Assembly: GCA_016195465.1 (NCBI GenBank)
Contig: JACPZO010000015.1
Location: 1-48,235 of the forward strand
Direction of reading: 5' to 3'
DNA length: 48,235 nucleotides
Origin: Nitrospirota bacterium
GTDB lineage: Bacteria > Nitrospirota > RBG-16-64-22
In this document: one piece after another, positions 15,890-24,059 of the stretch
Layout of the letters: each line of letters begins with the position of its first letter
Position numbering within the stretch: the stretch's first letter is position 1
Program-made: the position numbers and the translations under genes
Notes under the pieces: generated by a model
The model's database searches: none
Seen by the model: only the letters and a program-made list of their open reading frames with translations
Told to the model about the DNA's origin: nothing

Positions 15890-15928
15890 CAATTTACAAT
15901 TTGAAATTTACAATTTCCAATTTTCAAT
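15890..15928. repeat. AT-rich intergenic micro-repeat
   Basis: AATTTACAATTTGAAATTTACAATTTCCAATTTTCAAT in a G+C-rich context. Confidence 0.6.
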
Positions 15929-16023
15929 CTGTCTTCCCGCTTGACATCACCCCCCGAGGATTTCCATACTGCGACCGTCGCCGTATTGTCAACCAATCGC
16001 TTGAATACTTGAAAGGAAACCCG

Positions 16024-16704
16024 GTGAGATCCAGGAGCCGTACCTTCAAGAACCGGATCTACGCGCAGTTTGCCCGCGTCGGGAAGGCTCTTTCCAGCCC
16101 CAAGAGACTGGAGCTCCTGGAGCTTCTGGCCCAGGGCGAGCGGACGGTCGAAGGCCTGTCGAGGGAGGCGTCACAAACCATCGCGAACTGCTCTCGGCAC
16201 CTTCAGGTCCTCAGGCAGGCCAACCTCGTGGAAACGCGCAAGGAGGGGACCTACGTCTATTACCGCCTTGCGGACGACGGCGTCAGCCGCTTCTGGCTTG
16301 AGCTTCGGGCTCTGGCCGAGGAGCGGCTGGCCGAGGTGGAACGCGTGGTGAGAGATTACATCGAGTTGAAGGACGACTTTGAGCCCATCGGCTGCTCTGA
16401 ACTGTTGGACAGGCTTCGAAAAGGCGAGGTCGTTGTTTTGGATGTCCGTCCCGAGGAAGAATACCGGGCTGGGCACCTCCCCGGCGCGCTCTCCGTTCCG
16501 CCCGGGGAGGTTGAACGGCGGCTGGCGAGTCTCCCGCGGGACAGGGAGATCGTGGCCTACTGCCGGGGCCGATATTGTGTTTACGCGGTGGAGGCGGTCA
16601 AGGCCTTACGTAAGCACGGCTATGCCGCCCGGCGCATGGAGCAGGGGATCCCCGAGTGGCGGCTCCTTGGTTTTCCCCTCGAAGTCGGGGGGACCGCGGG
16701 ATGA
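16024..16704 (+). CDS. ArsR-family regulator fused to rhodanese domain
   Basis: wHTH KALSSPKRLELLELLAQGERTVEGLSREASQTIANCSRHLQVLRQANLVETRKEGTYVYYRL, then rhodanese DVRPEEEYRAGHLPGA..VAYCRGRYCVYA. Confidence 0.87.
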   Translation: MRSRSRTFKNRIYAQFARVGKALSSPKRLELLELLAQGERTVEGLSREASQTIANCSRHLQVLRQANLVETRKEGTYVYYRLADDGVSRFWLELRALAEERLAEVERVVRDYIELKDDFEPIGCSELLDRLRKGEVVVLDVRPEEEYRAGHLPGALSVPPGEVERRLASLPRDREIVAYCRGRYCVYAVEAVKALRKHGYAARRMEQGIPEWRLLGFPLEVGGTAG

Positions 16705-16785: not shown

Positions 16786-17478
16786 ATGGGAAATAAGGCG
16801 ACAGCCGGGAATGGGAACGCCCGAGAATCCGGGGTGCGGACCCTCAACCGATTCCTGGCCCAGACGGCCGACGGGGCATTCGTCCTAGACGAGCGACATT
16901 GTATCGTTCTCTGGAACAAGGCCTGTGAGCGCATCTTCGGTCTGGATCCCCGCATTGTGCTGGGGAAGCCGTGCTGGGAAGTGGTCGGCGGAGAGGACCG
17001 CTACGGAAACCCGATCTGCCTCTCTCGGTGCTTGGTCTCCGCTGCCGCCCGCCAGGGGCGGCTTGTGAAAAGCTTCGAGATGCGGATCCTCCGGAAGGGG
17101 GAGCCGGTGTGGATCAGCGCAAGCACTCTCTTCGTTCGGGGTCACCAGAAGGGTCTCTCGACCACCATCCATCTTGTGCGGGAAAGCTGGGATCCGCGCG
17201 GGCTGGAAGGCCATCTTCAGGAACTGCTCGCGCGATTGGAAAAACACCCGTTGGCGGAAAAGGAATCTCTAGACGCGAAGGCCATGCCGCCGCTCAGTCC
17301 GCGGGAAAGAGAAGTCCTCTCCTGCTTGTCGCGGGGCCAGCACGCGAAGGAGATCGCCCGGCAGCTCGGCGTGAGTCCGAGCACGGTGCGCAGCCACGTC
17401 AAGACCATCCTCTGCAAGCTCGAAGTCCACAGTCAGCTCGAGGCTGTTGCCCACGCGTTCCAGCACCACCTGCTCTGA
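16786..17478 (+). CDS. PAS-domain LuxR-type transcriptional regulator with Cys-rich PAS
   Basis: PAS with CWEVVGGEDRYGNPICLSRCLV; HTH LSPREREVLSCLSRGQHAKEIARQLGVSPSTVRSHVKTILCKL. Confidence 0.85.
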   Translation: MGNKATAGNGNARESGVRTLNRFLAQTADGAFVLDERHCIVLWNKACERIFGLDPRIVLGKPCWEVVGGEDRYGNPICLSRCLVSAAARQGRLVKSFEMRILRKGEPVWISASTLFVRGHQKGLSTTIHLVRESWDPRGLEGHLQELLARLEKHPLAEKESLDAKAMPPLSPREREVLSCLSRGQHAKEIARQLGVSPSTVRSHVKTILCKLEVHSQLEAVAHAFQHHLL

Positions 17479-17737: not shown

Positions 17738-20665
17738 ATGAAGGCAATCGGAAGAAGGGAGTTCCTGAAGGGGTCCGGAGTGGGCCTTCTTGCCCTGCTG
17801 GCTACGCCGGACTTGGCCTTTTCGAAGATCCAGGCCGTGGGCGACCCCCTGCGGGAATACCCCTACAGGGGGTGGGAGGATCTCTACCGGAAAGAGTGGA
17901 CTTGGGACAGGGTCCAGTACGCCACCCACAGCGTGGGGTGCGTGGGCAAATGCTCGTGGAAGGTCTACTCCAAGGACGGGATCCCGCTCCGGGAGGAACA
18001 GACGGCGACCTATTCCACCTACGCCCGGCGCACGCCCGGAAAGTACACTTGGAAATGCAATGGAAAGGAGCGAGGGGAGTATATCCGGTACGGTCCGGGC
18101 GGGGTCGTCCCTTCCTATTCGCCCCGGGGCTGCCAGAAAGGGATCGTCTACTCCGACTACATGAAGCAGGGAAACTTCCTCAAGTACCCGCTCAAGAGGG
18201 TGGGCGAGCGCGGGGGGAGGAAGTGGAAGAGAATCTCCTGGGAGCAGGCGTTCGACGAGATCGCGGAGAAGATCATCGAGACCACGCTGAAGGACCCGGG
18301 AGCGATGATCACCACCTCACGGGCTTTTTCGCAGCTTTCCAAGGGGAGCTCGGAGCGGTTCACGGGGCTCCTGGGCGGGCAGCTCGTCCCCGTCTCGGCC
18401 ATGGTGGGCGATGCCTATCCGGCGGGCCATACGGTCCTGATCGGAAGGATCGGCTCTACCCGGGACGACTGGTTTACAGCCGACCTCTTCATCGGCTGGA
18501 CCCAGAATTTCACCGCCATGGCGATGCCCGACGCCCATTTCGCCCACGAGGCGAAGTATAACGGCGCAAGGATTATTGTGGTTGACCCGAACCACAATGT
18601 GACTGCCGCGCAGGCCGCGGACCTCTATGTGCCGATAAGGATGGGGAGCGACTCCTATCTCGCGGCGGCAATCTGCAATGCCATCATCAAGGAGAAGAAA
18701 TACGATGAGGACTTTCTGAAGGAGCAGTCGGATTTGCCGTTCCTCATAAGGCTCGATACCAAAAAGTTCCTTGCCCAGAAGGACATGAAGCCGGATGGCA
18801 AGGAGTTTCAGTATTATTTTTGGGACACAAAGACCAATCAGGCCGTTGAAGCTCCCGGATGCCTTGACAGCCCAAAGGAAAAAAAGACTCTCGATATTGC
18901 GAAGCTCGGTTTTGACCCGGCCCTGGAAGGAAAATACAAAGTAAAGCTTGCGGATGGCAAAGAAATCGAATGCACGACGGTTTTCGAGATGACAAAGGCC
19001 GGGATATCAGAATACGACATGAATAGCGCGCTCGTGAGAGAGACAACGGGACTCCATCCCTCGGTCATCCGGACCATGACCGACTGGATGCTGGAGTCAA
19101 AATCCCTCCATATCACAAATGGGTATAACTGCCAGAAGCATTATGACGGGTATCAGTCCGAGAGGCTCAAGCTCTTGATACTTACCCTCACGGGACAAAT
19201 CGGAGGACCGGGCGCCTATCATCAGACCTATGAAGGCATGAAGCTCGAAGGGGGGCGGGCGGCGGGCGGCCTTCACTTTCCTGACCAGCCTGCTCGTCCC
19301 GAATTTGGGATAGAGGCTAAAAAAGGCGGTAAGCAACCGCCGAGCGTGGGTATCTACCACGAGGTCATCTACGGGAAGAGCCTCGAGCGGAGCAAGAAGT
19401 ATTTCGCCGGCACGCCCCTCAAGGAGCAGATCGGCTTCGACGTGAACGACATGGAGGCGTTCCTCGGGGACGCCCTCCAGAAGAAGTACCTCCCCAGCCA
19501 GAAGACGCCCAAGATCGCCCTCTGGCACTCCTGCAACAACTACCGCAACAAGACCGGCCAGCAGTGGTGGAGGGATAACTACCTGAAGAATCTCGATCTC
19601 CTCATCGTGACGGAGCTCAGGATGTCAGCCTCCGCCCAGTCCGCCGATTATGTCCTGTCAGCGGCAACCGACTACGAGAGGTGGGACGGCAGAGAGACAA
19701 CCAGTAATCCCTTCTTCACCCTTTTTGGGCGGGCCGTCAAGCCGATGTTTGGCCGGAGATCGGACTGGCAGATCTACGCGGGTCTCTGCAAGGCGATCCA
19801 GGAGAAGGCCATCGCCAGGAGGGTTGGGAGCATTCCCTTCGAGTACTGGGACGGGACGAAGAAGGTCAAGCGGACCATAGACCTTCAGACTATACATGAC
19901 GAGTATATACAGAATGGCGAGTTGGACACAGATGAGAAGGCGCTAAAGTGGCACAATATGAAGTCTAAAGGGCTTGGCGGTGAGGAAGGCTACGAGAAAT
20001 TCGTAAAAGAGGGTTATGTAAAATTCAGAGGACCCGCCAAATATGGCAACTACGAAGACGATGCCCCTGCCAGATCCATGAGATGGCAGGTCATAGACAA
20101 AAAGCCGTCCAAGACCAATACAGGAAGGTTCCAGTTCTATGTTGACCACGAGTATCACATAAAGTTGAACCAGATGACGCCGAAGCCTCAATACACCGAC
20201 AAATGGAAGGGCGGACCCATCATGCCGAGGAAGCCCGACGGAAGCCCATACCCATTCGTGATGAACTATCCCCACACTAAGTGGGGCATCCATTCGTCCT
20301 TCAGGGAAAACCAGTGGTTGATGAGGCTCCAGAGGGGGGAGGTCTACCTCTACCTGAGTCCCAAGGTCATGCGGGAGAGGGGGATCAAGGACATGAACAT
20401 AGTGAGAGTGTACAACCACATGGGCGAGTGGTTCGCCCGGGCCAAGGAGTGGCCGGGACTGCCGCCCTATATCGTCTTCACCGAGCACGGCTGGGACCAT
20501 CAGTACACAAAGAATTGGACGCACTACAATAACCTGAATTGCGAGTTCCTGAACCCCCTGGAGATGGCCGGCGGGACCCGGGGACACATCGTCTACACCG
20601 GAAACCACACCGGTAACCGCATCTACTACGAGACAGGCGTGGACATCGAGAAGGTGGAGGGCTGA
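17738..20665 (+). CDS. Type II DMSO-reductase-family molybdopterin oxidoreductase, catalytic alpha subunit (Tat-exported)
   Basis: Twin-arginine GRREFLKGSG; HSVGCVGKCSWKVY..SYSPRGCQKG (H-x3-C-x3-C-xn-C FS0 ligands); NarG/EbdA-like architecture. Confidence 0.9.
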   Translation: MKAIGRREFLKGSGVGLLALLATPDLAFSKIQAVGDPLREYPYRGWEDLYRKEWTWDRVQYATHSVGCVGKCSWKVYSKDGIPLREEQTATYSTYARRTPGKYTWKCNGKERGEYIRYGPGGVVPSYSPRGCQKGIVYSDYMKQGNFLKYPLKRVGERGGRKWKRISWEQAFDEIAEKIIETTLKDPGAMITTSRAFSQLSKGSSERFTGLLGGQLVPVSAMVGDAYPAGHTVLIGRIGSTRDDWFTADLFIGWTQNFTAMAMPDAHFAHEAKYNGARIIVVDPNHNVTAAQAADLYVPIRMGSDSYLAAAICNAIIKEKKYDEDFLKEQSDLPFLIRLDTKKFLAQKDMKPDGKEFQYYFWDTKTNQAVEAPGCLDSPKEKKTLDIAKLGFDPALEGKYKVKLADGKEIECTTVFEMTKAGISEYDMNSALVRETTGLHPSVIRTMTDWMLESKSLHITNGYNCQKHYDGYQSERLKLLILTLTGQIGGPGAYHQTYEGMKLEGGRAAGGLHFPDQPARPEFGIEAKKGGKQPPSVGIYHEVIYGKSLERSKKYFAGTPLKEQIGFDVNDMEAFLGDALQKKYLPSQKTPKIALWHSCNNYRNKTGQQWWRDNYLKNLDLLIVTELRMSASAQSADYVLSAATDYERWDGRETTSNPFFTLFGRAVKPMFGRRSDWQIYAGLCKAIQEKAIARRVGSIPFEYWDGTKKVKRTIDLQTIHDEYIQNGELDTDEKALKWHNMKSKGLGGEEGYEKFVKEGYVKFRGPAKYGNYEDDAPARSMRWQVIDKKPSKTNTGRFQFYVDHEYHIKLNQMTPKPQYTDKWKGGPIMPRKPDGSPYPFVMNYPHTKWGIHSSFRENQWLMRLQRGEVYLYLSPKVMRERGIKDMNIVRVYNHMGEWFARAKEWPGLPPYIVFTEHGWDHQYTKNWTHYNNLNCEFLNPLEMAGGTRGHIVYTGNHTGNRIYYETGVDIEKVEG

Positions 20666-20668
20666 GAC

Positions 20669-21880
20669 ATGTCCGAGTTCACGGGAAAGCAGCTCGCCGC
20701 GGTCTTCGATCTCAACAAATGCCTCGAATGCCACACCTGCACCCTGGCCTGCAAGCTCATGTGGACGAACCGGGGCGGCCGCGAATACATGTACTGGAAC
20801 AACGTGGAGACCATGCCGGGGTTCGGTTATCCCAAGGGGTGGGGAAACGGGACGAACCAGACCGCGTCCGGGGAAGGACAGGTCCTGGGCGGAGGCTTCC
20901 GGAGCGTGGCGTTGGAGGAAGGGAGGAGCGACGGGAAGGTCAAGAGCCGGGGCTCCGTGATCCGGGACGGGAAGATCCCGGAGATGGAAGATGACTACGG
21001 CCTTCCGTGGGAGTACGACTACGAGGCGGTGTTCGAGCCCGGCGCCTCTTTCGAGACGCCCGGGGCCACGGGTCCGCGGCCTCACTGGGAGGGGAAGGAG
21101 GTCAGGCCCAAGTGGGGCCCGAACTGGGAAGAGGACCAGGGGGCCGGCGAGTGGCCCAATCACTGGGCGCTTGCCCTTCCCCGGATCTGCAACCATTGCA
21201 CCCATCCGGCCTGCCTGCAGGCCTGCCCGAGGAAAGCGATCTACAAGAGGCAGGAGGACGGCGTCGTCCTCGTGGACCAGGACCGGTGCAGGGGTTATCG
21301 CCACTGCGTCAGGGCGTGTCCCTACAAGAAGCCTTATTTCAACGTCCTCGTCGGCAAGACCGAGAAGTGCCTCCTTTGCTACCCCAGGGTCGAGAAGGGC
21401 GTGCCGCCGGCCTGCTTCTGGCAGTGCCCGGGGAGGATCCGGTTCATCGGCTGGAAGGACGACCCGAAGAGCGCGGTCCACAAGCTTGTCAACGAGTGGA
21501 AGGTTGCCCTGCCTCTGCACCCGGAGTTCGGGACGGAGCCCAACGTTTTCTACGTGCCGCCGGTCGGCTCCTTCAAGTTCGGGCCGAACGGCGAGATGAC
21601 CCAGGAGAGAAGGATTCCCCTTCAGTACCTGGCCCGTCTCTTCGGGGGGGCTGAGAACGTGAAGCGCGCTCAGGACGTCATTCTGGCGGAACGGGAGAAG
21701 ATGAGGAAGGGGATCAAGAGCGAGCTCTGCATGATCCTGATCGGCCATGACAACGAGGACCGGTTCCAGCTCAACGTGGACGGCAAGCCTTTCAAGAGGC
21801 CGGAAGAGGTCCAGCCGGTCAAGACCCAGTTCGTGGCGCCATCCGAGGACCCTGAAAAACCCTCTCGCGGGGACGTCTGA
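20669..21880 (+). CDS. Fe-S electron-transfer beta subunit of the type II molybdoenzyme
   Basis: DLNKCLECHTCTLACKLMWT; CNHCTHPACLQACP; CRGYRHCVRACPYKKPYFN; CLLCYPRVEKGVPPACFWQCPGRIRFIG. Confidence 0.92.
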   Translation: MSEFTGKQLAAVFDLNKCLECHTCTLACKLMWTNRGGREYMYWNNVETMPGFGYPKGWGNGTNQTASGEGQVLGGGFRSVALEEGRSDGKVKSRGSVIRDGKIPEMEDDYGLPWEYDYEAVFEPGASFETPGATGPRPHWEGKEVRPKWGPNWEEDQGAGEWPNHWALALPRICNHCTHPACLQACPRKAIYKRQEDGVVLVDQDRCRGYRHCVRACPYKKPYFNVLVGKTEKCLLCYPRVEKGVPPACFWQCPGRIRFIGWKDDPKSAVHKLVNEWKVALPLHPEFGTEPNVFYVPPVGSFKFGPNGEMTQERRIPLQYLARLFGGAENVKRAQDVILAEREKMRKGIKSELCMILIGHDNEDRFQLNVDGKPFKRPEEVQPVKTQFVAPSEDPEKPSRGDV

Positions 21881-22587
21881 TGGAGACGACCCGGAATATC
21901 GAGGTCGCGGGGCCCGCCCGGCGCATCGAATCCACAAGCCGGATATACCTGCTCCTGGGCCGGTTCTTCTCCTATCCCGACGGGCGTTTCTACGGGACAA
22001 CGAAAGATCCGCGGATACAGGAGGACCTGCGCTCTCTTGTGGATGGGCTGCCTTTTGACGTGAAGTTCGAGGACATCCCCTCTCCTTCCGTTCCGCAGGA
22101 CGAGTTCGAATCCGAGTACATCAATTCCTTCGACATCACCCCGCCTTGTCCCCTGTACGAGTTCCACTACAGAAGCGGAGAACTGACCCGCAGGGAGATC
22201 CTCGAGGAGCTCCTCTGCTTCTACGGACACTTCGACGTCAAGCTGAGCGAGACGGAAAAAGACTATCCGGACCACCTGGTGGCGGAGCTGGAATTCATGG
22301 CTTTCCTCGCGATGAAGGAGGCCGACGCCGGAGAGCGGGGGACGGACCCGGACCCCTACCGCAGGGCCCAGCGAGATTTCCTGGAGAGGCACTTGGGGCG
22401 ATGGGTCGATAGACTGGACGCACGGATCCGGAAAGTCACCCGGGAGCGCTTTTACAGGGGGGCGAGTTTTCTCCTGAGGGAGTTTGTGAAGAGCCACCTC
22501 TTGCACCTTCGAGAGCAAGGGAGCGCCGAATCAATCGTCCCCCCGGGCTTGGGAGGAGATTGCGCTGAAAGGGAGGCGTCGCCATGA
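21880..22587 (+). CDS. TorD/NarJ-like molybdoenzyme assembly chaperone (delta)
   Basis: ESTSRIYLLLGRFFSYPDGRFY..FESEYINSFD..PCPLYE; ATGA overlap with the beta stop. Confidence 0.82.
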   Translation: METTRNIEVAGPARRIESTSRIYLLLGRFFSYPDGRFYGTTKDPRIQEDLRSLVDGLPFDVKFEDIPSPSVPQDEFESEYINSFDITPPCPLYEFHYRSGELTRREILEELLCFYGHFDVKLSETEKDYPDHLVAELEFMAFLAMKEADAGERGTDPDPYRRAQRDFLERHLGRWVDRLDARIRKVTRERFYRGASFLLREFVKSHLLHLREQGSAESIVPPGLGGDCAEREASP

Positions 22588-24059
22588 CGAGAATAGTGAA
22601 GTGGGCGTGGGTTTCATTCGGTGTGTTTCTCATGGGGACGGCCTCAGAGGGAGCAGCCCCCGCCCCTTCGAGACAGGGCGAGGCGCTTTACAAGGAGCAA
22701 TGTTCCATTTGCCACGGCGCCGAAGGCAAGGGGGACGGCTCCGCGGCCGAATTCCTTTTCCCCAAGCCGAGAAATTTCACGACCGGCACGTTCAAGGTTC
22801 GCTCGACCCCCAGCGGCTCCCCACCGACGGATCAAGACCTCTTGAACACGGTGACCCAAGGGATGCCGGGCTCGGCCATGCCGGGGTTCTCGTTCCTCTC
22901 CAAGGGAGATCGCCTGGCCCTGGTCAGCCACGTCAAGAGACTCGCCAATCTCCAGGAGAAGCCCGAGGGGACCATCGCGGTCTCTTCGCCCCCCGCGGCG
23001 ACGCCGGAAACTCTTGCCCAGGGAAAGAAGCTTTACCGGGAGATGAAATGCTGGGAGTGCCACGGCGATGAGGGGCGGGCGGATGGTCCGTCGACCGGCA
23101 CACTGAAGGATGATTCGGGGGAGGCCATCCTCGCGAACGACTTTACCCGCGGCATCTACAAGGGGGGAGGAACTCTCTCCGACATCGTCTTCCGCTTCGC
23201 CACGGGGATGGACGGGACTCCGATGCCCTCCTACGAAGATTCGCTCAAGGAGCCGGAGCGCTGGGCGCTGGCCCGCTACGTGAAGTCCCTGGCGGGTCCG
23301 AAGGTGGCGGTTCAGCCGACCACGGGAACGGTTGTGGTGAAGAGAGTCTCGGGGCCCGTTCCGACCGACACCATGGATCCGGCATGGGGGAAGGTCCCCG
23401 CCGTCCCCGTTCCGCTCATGCTGCTCTGGCAGAGGAACGAGGCGGCCGCCGACGAGGTCTCGGTCAAGGCCTTGCACAACGGGAAAGAGATCGCGCTGCT
23501 GCTCGAATGGAAAGACGAGGAGGTCAGTACGCGGTTCCGCCGCGATCGCCACTTCGCCGACGCGGCCGCCGTCATGTTCTCGCTCGCGCCCCAAGTCCCT
23601 CTTTCCCGGCAGGCGCACTTCGCCATGGGGGAAAAGAAGAAACCGGTCAACATCTGGTACTGGGCGCTGGACCGGCGCATGGACCTCGTCGGCGTTGAGC
23701 CTCCGGTCCAGCCGGCTTTCGCGCGCGGTCCGGCCCTCGTTGCAGGGTGGGGATCGGGGAATGCGGCCTCGGTCCCCTTGAGGCCCTCGGCGATTGTCGA
23801 GGACCTGAACGCGGAAGGTTTCGGGACACTTACGGCCCAGCCGCGCGCGGACCAGAACGTCAACGGATCCGGGTTCTACGCGGCCGGCCGCTGGAGAGTT
23901 GTCTTTACCCGCGACCTTCGCTCAAGAGGTGCGCTCGACGCGCCGCTTGAGCCTGGCCGGGCCATCCCGGTTGCGTTCGCCGTCTGGAACGGTTCCGCGG
24001 AGGACCGCGACGGCCAGAAAGCGGTCTCTACCTGGTACAGGCTTGTGCTGGCGAGATAG
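22584..24059 (+). CDS. Di-haem cytochrome c fused to ethylbenzene-dehydrogenase gamma-type haem-b domain
   Basis: Signal peptide; CSICHGAEGKGDGS and CWECHGDEGRADGPS; C-terminal EB_dh-like domain (DTMDPAWGKVPAVPV..HFAMGEKKKPVNIWYW..DRDGQKAVSTWYRLVL). Confidence 0.87.
   Translation: MTRIVKWAWVSFGVFLMGTASEGAAPAPSRQGEALYKEQCSICHGAEGKGDGSAAEFLFPKPRNFTTGTFKVRSTPSGSPPTDQDLLNTVTQGMPGSAMPGFSFLSKGDRLALVSHVKRLANLQEKPEGTIAVSSPPAATPETLAQGKKLYREMKCWECHGDEGRADGPSTGTLKDDSGEAILANDFTRGIYKGGGTLSDIVFRFATGMDGTPMPSYEDSLKEPERWALARYVKSLAGPKVAVQPTTGTVVVKRVSGPVPTDTMDPAWGKVPAVPVPLMLLWQRNEAAADEVSVKALHNGKEIALLLEWKDEEVSTRFRRDRHFADAAAVMFSLAPQVPLSRQAHFAMGEKKKPVNIWYWALDRRMDLVGVEPPVQPAFARGPALVAGWGSGNAASVPLRPSAIVEDLNAEGFGTLTAQPRADQNVNGSGFYAAGRWRVVFTRDLRSRGALDAPLEPGRAIPVAFAVWNGSAEDRDGQKAVSTWYRLVLAR

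What the first reader, a model, noticed from the sequence alone, without database searches (positions are those of the whole stretch)
17738..24059. Uncharacterised type II DMSO-reductase-family enzyme with a di-haem-c/EBDH-gamma fusion as its redox partner
Four translationally coupled genes: Tat-exported alpha (H-x3-C-x3-C-xn-C), beta, TorD-like chaperone, and a fused cytochrome c + ethylbenzene-dehydrogenase-gamma-like subunit. Family knowledge: type II enzymes (NarG, EbdA, SerA, PcrA/ClrA, DdhA, NxrA) act on oxyanions, DMS or hydrocarbons, and their gamma subunit is normally a stand-alone b-haem protein. Here the gamma domain carries two N-terminal CxxCH haems and no membrane anchor gene is present. 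Inference: a soluble periplasmic complex exchanging electrons through its own c-haems, with an unknown substrate.
Basis: partly seen in the sequence, partly recalled or inferred. Interest (0 to 1): 0.75.

Follow-up and report, generated by a model that had tools for sequence, protein, structure and literature searches.

The report
Oxyanion-reductase relative wired to haems
A groundwater bacterium carries an exported molybdenum enzyme, related to selenate and chlorate reductases, whose usual single-haem wiring subunit is replaced by a three-haem subunit of the kind found with nitrite-oxidising enzymes; its substrate is unknown but can now be tested.

Summary
An A-B-D-C operon at 17738-24059 encodes a Tat-exported molybdopterin alpha, an Fe-S beta, a TorD-like chaperone, and a gamma that fuses a di-haem cytochrome c to an EB_dh domain. 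Alpha and beta are the sister group of the selenate/chlorate reductase (SerA/ClrA) branch (100/100 alpha, 93/92 beta), not an orphan and not EBDH-like. The gamma has a different history: its EB_dh domain groups with Kuenenia NxrC and the 'alt_NxrC' cytochrome fusions of Nitrospirota (100/99.9). A shared origin with ClrC/SerC, as the alpha tree would predict, is rejected (AU p = 0.0004). So this is a mosaic: a SerA/ClrA-type catalytic core with an NxrC-type, c-haem-bearing gamma. The fusion itself is already described (Nitrospina, 2013); its use as the gamma of a Ser/Clr-type operon I did not find described. Seven other genomes labelled as five phyla, mostly aquifer MAGs, carry the operon. Most likely it is a soluble periplasmic complex passing electrons cytochrome pool > c-haems > b-haem > Fe-S > Mo to an oxyanion. 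Chlorate is unlikely: no chlorite dismutase was found in the host. The oxidising direction is not excluded, and DdhA could not be placed. New variant of a known kind.

The parts
17738..20665 (+). alpha: Mo-bis-MGD catalytic subunit with Tat signal, 975 aa, sister clade of SerA/ClrA
17927..18133 (+). FS0 ligand region of alpha (H64-x3-C68-x3-C72-xn-C132)
   Evidence: alignment
18041..18106 (+). insertion of about 22 residues between the third and fourth FS0 ligands; in all members of this clade that were aligned, absent from ClrA, EbdA, PcrA and NarZ
18410..18412 (+). Asp225, predicted Mo ligand (GD motif)
   Evidence: alignment with EbdA, PcrA and ClrA
20669..21880 (+). beta: Fe-S subunit, 403 aa (ClrB is 328 aa), follows the alpha phylogeny
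21880..22587 (+). delta: TorD-like Mo-enzyme chaperone (TIGR03482, above cut-off)
22584..24059 (+). gamma: di-haem cytochrome c fused to EB_dh (b-haem) domain, 491 aa
22671..23303 (+). di-haem cytochrome c part of gamma; CxxCH at 22701-22715 and 23049-23063; homologous to Kustc0458 (6h5l_B)
23376..24023 (+). EB_dh domain of gamma, NxrC-type; haem-b ligands Met348 (23625-23627) and Lys479 (24018-24020)
15901..16704 (+). ArsR-type regulator with rhodanese domain, directly upstream in the three genomes of the genus; possible regulator
16786..17478 (+). PAS-LuxR regulator, upstream in the three genomes of the genus; possible regulator

Best explanation
A soluble periplasmic alpha-beta-gamma molybdoenzyme. 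Its catalytic core (alpha-beta, with chaperone D) shares an ancestor with selenate/chlorate reductases (Ser/Clr). Its electron-transfer subunit comes from the NxrC/alt_NxrC line and carries a tethered di-haem cytochrome c. Shown: the genes, cofactor motifs, phylogenies, the different histories of core and gamma, and the spread across phyla. Inferred: the three subunits form one complex; electrons run cytochrome pool > two c-haems > b-haem (Met/Lys) > FS4 to FS0 > Mo-bis-MGD; and the enzyme reduces an oxyanion, with selenate the first candidate and chlorate unlikely. The tethered cytochrome would replace the free periplasmic cytochrome that Ser/Clr-type enzymes use.
For: Alpha: 48% aligned identity to ClrA, 33% to EbdA and PcrA; with the SerA/ClrA clade at 100/100; joining EbdA or PcrA rejected (AU p 2e-6 and 8e-9). 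T. selenatis SerA is 83.6% identical to ClrA (PMC12724226), so it should fall inside the sister clade. Same A-B-D-C gene order as clr. Beta agrees. Gamma: EB_dh domain with NxrC/alt_NxrC 100/99.9, ClrC/SerC grouping rejected p = 0.0004; the model matches Kustc0458, NxrC and EbdC. The fusion is next to the operon in six of the seven other genomes; the seventh (L025) has a cytochrome gene and an EB_dh gene side by side. Phosphate-type porin downstream in two genomes (L022, L024). Mo-site context resembles ClrA: Gly before the first FS0 Cys, no aromatic gate, and a YNxQKHxDGxQ block shared only with ClrA-type rows.
Against: No substrate or direction is demonstrated. The alpha stem branch is long and the clade differs from SerA/ClrA at the Mo pocket (WHSCN block, FS0 insertion, V-S-A-M before V-GD). 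Alpha, beta and gamma score below the NCBIfam subfamily cut-offs that ClrABC pass. The DMS dehydrogenase DdhA, an oxidising enzyme, could not be placed. Hosts of the genus are described as sulphur-oxidising autotrophs and the host has oxidases (PMC11033732), which would also suit a donor-side enzyme.
Confidence: 0.55

Rival explanations
1. Same complex run the other way: a periplasmic dehydrogenase (for example of a reduced sulphur compound such as DMS, or another small donor) that feeds electrons through the b- and c-haems to a high-potential oxidase.
For: The haem-b of EbDH (+256 mV) and DMS dehydrogenase (+324 mV) is high-potential and suits electron export to cytochrome c (PMC8840923). The host has haem-copper oxidases and DsrAB. 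An alt_NxrC-type fusion lies beside a bd-like oxidase on contig C111. An ArsR-rhodanese regulator lies upstream in the genus, and FCSD-like or DsrE genes lie a few kb away in two other genomes.
Against: The closest enzymes placed here (ClrA, and SerA through its identity to ClrA) are reductases. The sulphur-gene neighbours differ from genome to genome. DsrA is also frequent in the SerA/ClrA-like carriers (9 of 11, against 4 of 7 other carriers of this clade), so it does not point to this clade.
Confidence: 0.3
2. A nitrite oxidoreductase variant (the gamma is NxrC-like).
For: The gamma EB_dh domain groups with Kuenenia NxrC and the alt_NxrC proteins.
Against: Alpha is far from NxrA (PDB search E 2.7e-41 against about 1e-107 for EbdA and PcrA). 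It has H-C-C-C for FS0 where Kuenenia NXR has 3Cys/Asp, and Gly where NXR has its substrate Asn70.
Confidence: 0.05
3. An ethylbenzene-dehydrogenase-like hydrocarbon hydroxylase.
For: EB_dh gamma domain and Asp-ligated Mo.
Against: Alpha with EbdA rejected, p 2e-6. NF042978 scores 363 bits against a cut-off of 2000. EB_dh is shared by the whole Ser/Clr/Ddh/Ebd/NxrC group.
Confidence: 0.04
4. A chlorate respiratory reductase like ClrABC.
For: ClrA is the closest characterised relative found.
Against: No chlorite dismutase family match in the host, in the two other genomes of the genus (L019, L021), or in L020, L022 or L025; only weak partial matches in L023 and L024. Known clr loci carry cld. 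The absence is not decisive: the genomes are draft MAGs, and one ClrA-clade genome used as a control (L041) also showed none.
Confidence: 0.05

Closest known systems
Chlorate reductase ClrABDC (Ideonella, Alicycliphilus) and selenate reductase SerABDC (Thauera)
   Same: A-B-D-C operon, Tat-exported alpha, FS0 and Mo-ligand motifs, Fe-S beta, TorD chaperone, EB_dh gamma, no membrane anchor; sister clade in the alpha and beta trees
   Different: about 48% identical; alpha and beta insertions; gamma of a different lineage carrying two c-haems; no cld beside it
alt_NxrC proteins of Nitrospina/Nitrospira and Kuenenia NxrC
   Same: c-haem + EB_dh architecture (alt_NxrC) and the same EB_dh lineage, Met/Lys haem ligands
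   Different: those are linked to NXR or to a bd-like oxidase cluster, some with membrane helices; here the gene is the last of a Ser/Clr-type operon and has no anchor
Kustc0458 di-haem cytochrome (6h5l_B)
   Same: N-terminal half of gamma: phmmer E 4e-59; 45% identity over 212 columns in the fold search
   Different: a separate subunit of a HAO-like complex in Kuenenia
Ethylbenzene dehydrogenase EbdABC (2ivf)
   Same: type II family, Asp Mo ligand, EB_dh gamma
   Different: alpha 33% identical and outside the clade; gamma without c-haems

Membership tests
Type II (Asp-ligated) DMSO reductase family | H-x3-C-x3-C-xn-C FS0 motif and Asp Mo ligand in a Tat-exported alpha | tested here: met
NCBIfam TIGR03479/03478/03477 (DMSO_red_II alpha, beta, gamma) | score above the curated subfamily cut-off | tested here: not met
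   861<984.75; 461<480.7; 138<169.85; ClrA 1346, ClrB 582, ClrC 218 pass. The chaperone TIGR03482 passes: 158>152.3
SerABC/ClrABC | alpha inside the SerA/ClrA clade | tested here: not met
   sister group, long stem, 100/100
SerABC/ClrABC | A-B-D-C gene order | tested here: met
SerABC/ClrABC | stand-alone b-haem gamma of the ClrC/SerC lineage | tested here: not met
   fusion with two CxxCH; AU p 0.0004
SerABC/ClrABC | selenate or chlorate reductase activity | not testable with these tools
   needs purified enzyme
Ethylbenzene dehydrogenase | alpha in the EbdA clade / NF042978 cut-off | tested here: not met
Perchlorate reductase | alpha with PcrA; aromatic residues before the Mo ligand (FYDWYGD) | tested here: not met
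   V-S-A-M-V-G-D instead; AU p 8e-9
Nitrite oxidoreductase | NxrA active site (Asn70, FS0 3Cys/Asp of Kuenenia NXR) | tested here: not met
   Gly and H-C-C-C instead
NxrC/alt_NxrC gamma lineage | EB_dh domain in the NxrC/alt_NxrC group; c-haem fusion for alt_NxrC | tested here: met
   100/99.9; two CxxCH
DMS dehydrogenase DdhABC | alpha with DdhA | not tested

The most novel reading that the evidence does not exclude
A new functional class of respiratory molybdoenzyme, horizontally spread among aquifer bacteria of about five phyla, that acts on a substrate other than those of Ser, Clr, Ddh, Ebd or NXR and carries its own c-type haem wire in place of a free cytochrome partner.
Probability: 0.35. 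Interest if true: 0.7.

Novelty: new variant of a known kind. Interest (0 to 1): 0.5.

Why it matters
It shows that core and electron-transfer subunits of type II molybdoenzymes can be recombined between the selenate/chlorate-reductase and nitrite-oxidoreductase lines. It also defines a compact, expressible operon whose substrate would add a redox reaction to groundwater bacteria. Gene annotation would call it a chlorate or selenate reductase or an ethylbenzene dehydrogenase; the data here say none of these names is earned yet.

Tried and rejected
Two reference errors were corrected and redone. Plasmid tblastn gave ClrA and haloarchaeal relatives but no SerA or DdhA. A link to sulphur oxidation through DsrA was tested and is not specific: 4 of 7 other carriers of this clade against 9 of 11 SerA/ClrA-like carriers. 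EBDH-like, PcrA-like and NXR-like alpha placements were rejected. Conserved functional neighbours beyond regulators were sought; none is shared by all genomes. Papers on Rokubacteria CSP1-6 with type II enzymes: none found. The gamma structure model is only moderate (pLDDT 66) and was used for fold confirmation only.
Full report
WHAT IS THERE. The operon at 17738-24059 is real and complete. A ends at 20665 and B starts at 20669; D starts at 21880, on the last base of B; C starts at 22584, inside the end of D. Pfam and NCBIfam relate the four products to the type II DMSO reductase alpha, beta, chaperone and gamma. The gamma carries two cytochrome c domains before its EB_dh domain. Its N-terminal half is most like Kustc0458, a di-haem cytochrome of Kuenenia, and its C-terminal half most like NxrC. 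An AlphaFold model of moderate confidence (mean pLDDT 66) finds the same structures, 6h5l_B, 7b04_C and 2ivf_C. The b-haem ligands Met348 and Lys479 match the NxrC pair and are invariant in eight related gammas. A hydropathy scan finds no membrane helix in the window gamma; its start reads like a Sec leader.

WHO CARRIES IT. The window lies in a 2.6 Mb MAG, 93% complete. A published survey describes class RBG-16-64-22 of Nitrospirota as aquifer bacteria with aclAB (rTCA) and oxidative-type DsrAB (PMC11033732); the host has two full-length DsrA matches. A scan of 84,980 species found seven near relatives of the alpha, 74-89% identical. They are labelled Nitrospirota (3), Rokubacteria, Acidobacteria, Planctomycetota and Nitrospinota; these are submitters' labels of MAGs, and the scan used two peptide patterns, so the count is a lower bound. 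The alpha tree mixes the phyla, which suggests horizontal transfer, though mis-binning of single MAGs cannot be excluded.

WHERE THE CORE COMES FROM. The best characterised match is ClrA, 48% identical over the alignment, against 33% for EbdA and PcrA. In the careful tree the clade is sister to the SerA/ClrA group with 100/100 support, and joining it with EbdA or PcrA is rejected. T. selenatis SerA was not in my set, but it is reported 83.6% identical to Ideonella ClrA (PMC12724226), so it should belong inside that sister group. Beta gives the same answer (93/92). The clade has marks of its own: an insertion of about 22 residues inside the FS0 loop, a WHSCN block, and alpha, beta and gamma scores below the NCBIfam cut-offs that ClrABC pass.

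WHERE THE GAMMA COMES FROM. In the EB_dh tree the window-clade gammas, Kuenenia NxrC and the alt_NxrC-type fusions of Nitrospirota stand together (100/99.9), opposite ClrC/SerC and the haloarchaeal gammas. The arrangement predicted by the alpha and beta trees (window with Clr, haloarchaea outside) is rejected (p 0.0004). The first, quick tree gave the same split at 89, with EbdC on the Clr side. The fused gamma is next to the operon in L019, L020, L021, L022, L023 and L024; it lies downstream of D in some and upstream of A in others, and L022 has two copies. L025 has a separate cytochrome gene followed by an EB_dh gene, but its contig begins inside alpha, so an upstream fused copy cannot be excluded there. 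Gammas without haem c are the rule in the SerA/ClrA-like loci. Fusions of c-haems with EB_dh were already described as alt_NxrC in Nitrospina gracilis, two of four being predicted periplasmic (PMC3578206). In this phylum 146 of 296 genomes match the window gamma at E<=1e-30; some of these match only the cytochrome half. Nearly all loci read from that search carry both parts.

HOW IT MOST LIKELY WORKS. EbDH, Ser, Clr and DMS dehydrogenase exchange electrons with free periplasmic cytochromes through a b-haem subunit (PMC3578206), which is high-potential in EbDH and DMS dehydrogenase (PMC8840923). Here the cytochrome is tethered, so electrons can pass between the cytochrome pool and the b-haem without a diffusing partner (inference). 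The nearest enzymes reduce oxyanions, the Mo-pocket context resembles ClrA, and two genomes have a phosphate-type porin downstream. I therefore favour an oxyanion reductase. Chlorate is unlikely because chlorite dismutase was not found in the host or in five of seven other carriers, with only weak partial matches in the remaining two; this is not decisive on draft MAGs, since a ClrA-clade control genome (L041) also gave none. Selenate is the first candidate by kinship only. An oxidising role stays open: the host has oxidases and dsr genes, and DdhA could not be placed.

CAVEATS. EbdA and PcrA sequences were taken from printed PDB alignments and lack a few stretches; NxrC and EbdC likewise. Long branches are present in the alpha tree. 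The group for the AU test on gamma was chosen from the alpha topology after a first gamma tree had been seen. Absence of genes is judged on incomplete MAGs. The paper library lacks most subscription papers, so 'not found described' is limited to what it holds.

VERDICT. A new variant of a known kind. The structural and phylogenetic claims are well supported; direction and substrate are inference.

Noticed in passing
L054 (own genome contig C78: 20000-34418): A second type II operon whose gamma has the reverse order, EB_dh first and a c-haem domain at the C-terminus. It lies near an AIR-synthase family gene that reads like SelD, two Sulf_transp (YedE-type) genes, rhodaneses and an FCSD-like flavoprotein: a possible selenium or sulphur module.
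   Followed up: partly
L055 (own genome contig C111): Cluster of a bd-like oxidase subunit, two cytochromes c and an alt_NxrC-type di-haem/EB_dh protein with a C-terminal membrane helix, resembling the set reported as conserved in Nitrospira, Nitrospina and Kuenenia.
   Followed up: partly
own genome contigs C192 and C164 (L099, L100): Two separate full-length DsrA genes in one 2.6 Mb MAG; whether oxidative or reductive type was not tested.
   Followed up: no
L022: 1515-3464 and 11409-13433: One genome has two different di-haem/EB_dh gammas flanking the same operon, perhaps alternative electron partners.
   Followed up: no
L026 and L040: Sedimenticola selenatireducens has two SerA/ClrA-type operons; L040 alpha groups with ClrA and L026 alpha apart from it.
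   Followed up: no
L047 and L048: Type II alpha genes split into two ORFs by frame breaks: decayed genes or assembly errors.
   Followed up: no
L021: 3303-5036: Two adjacent 4Fe-4S proteins that read like NapG/NapH, a few genes upstream of the operon in RBG_16_64_22, a possible quinol link.
   Followed up: partly
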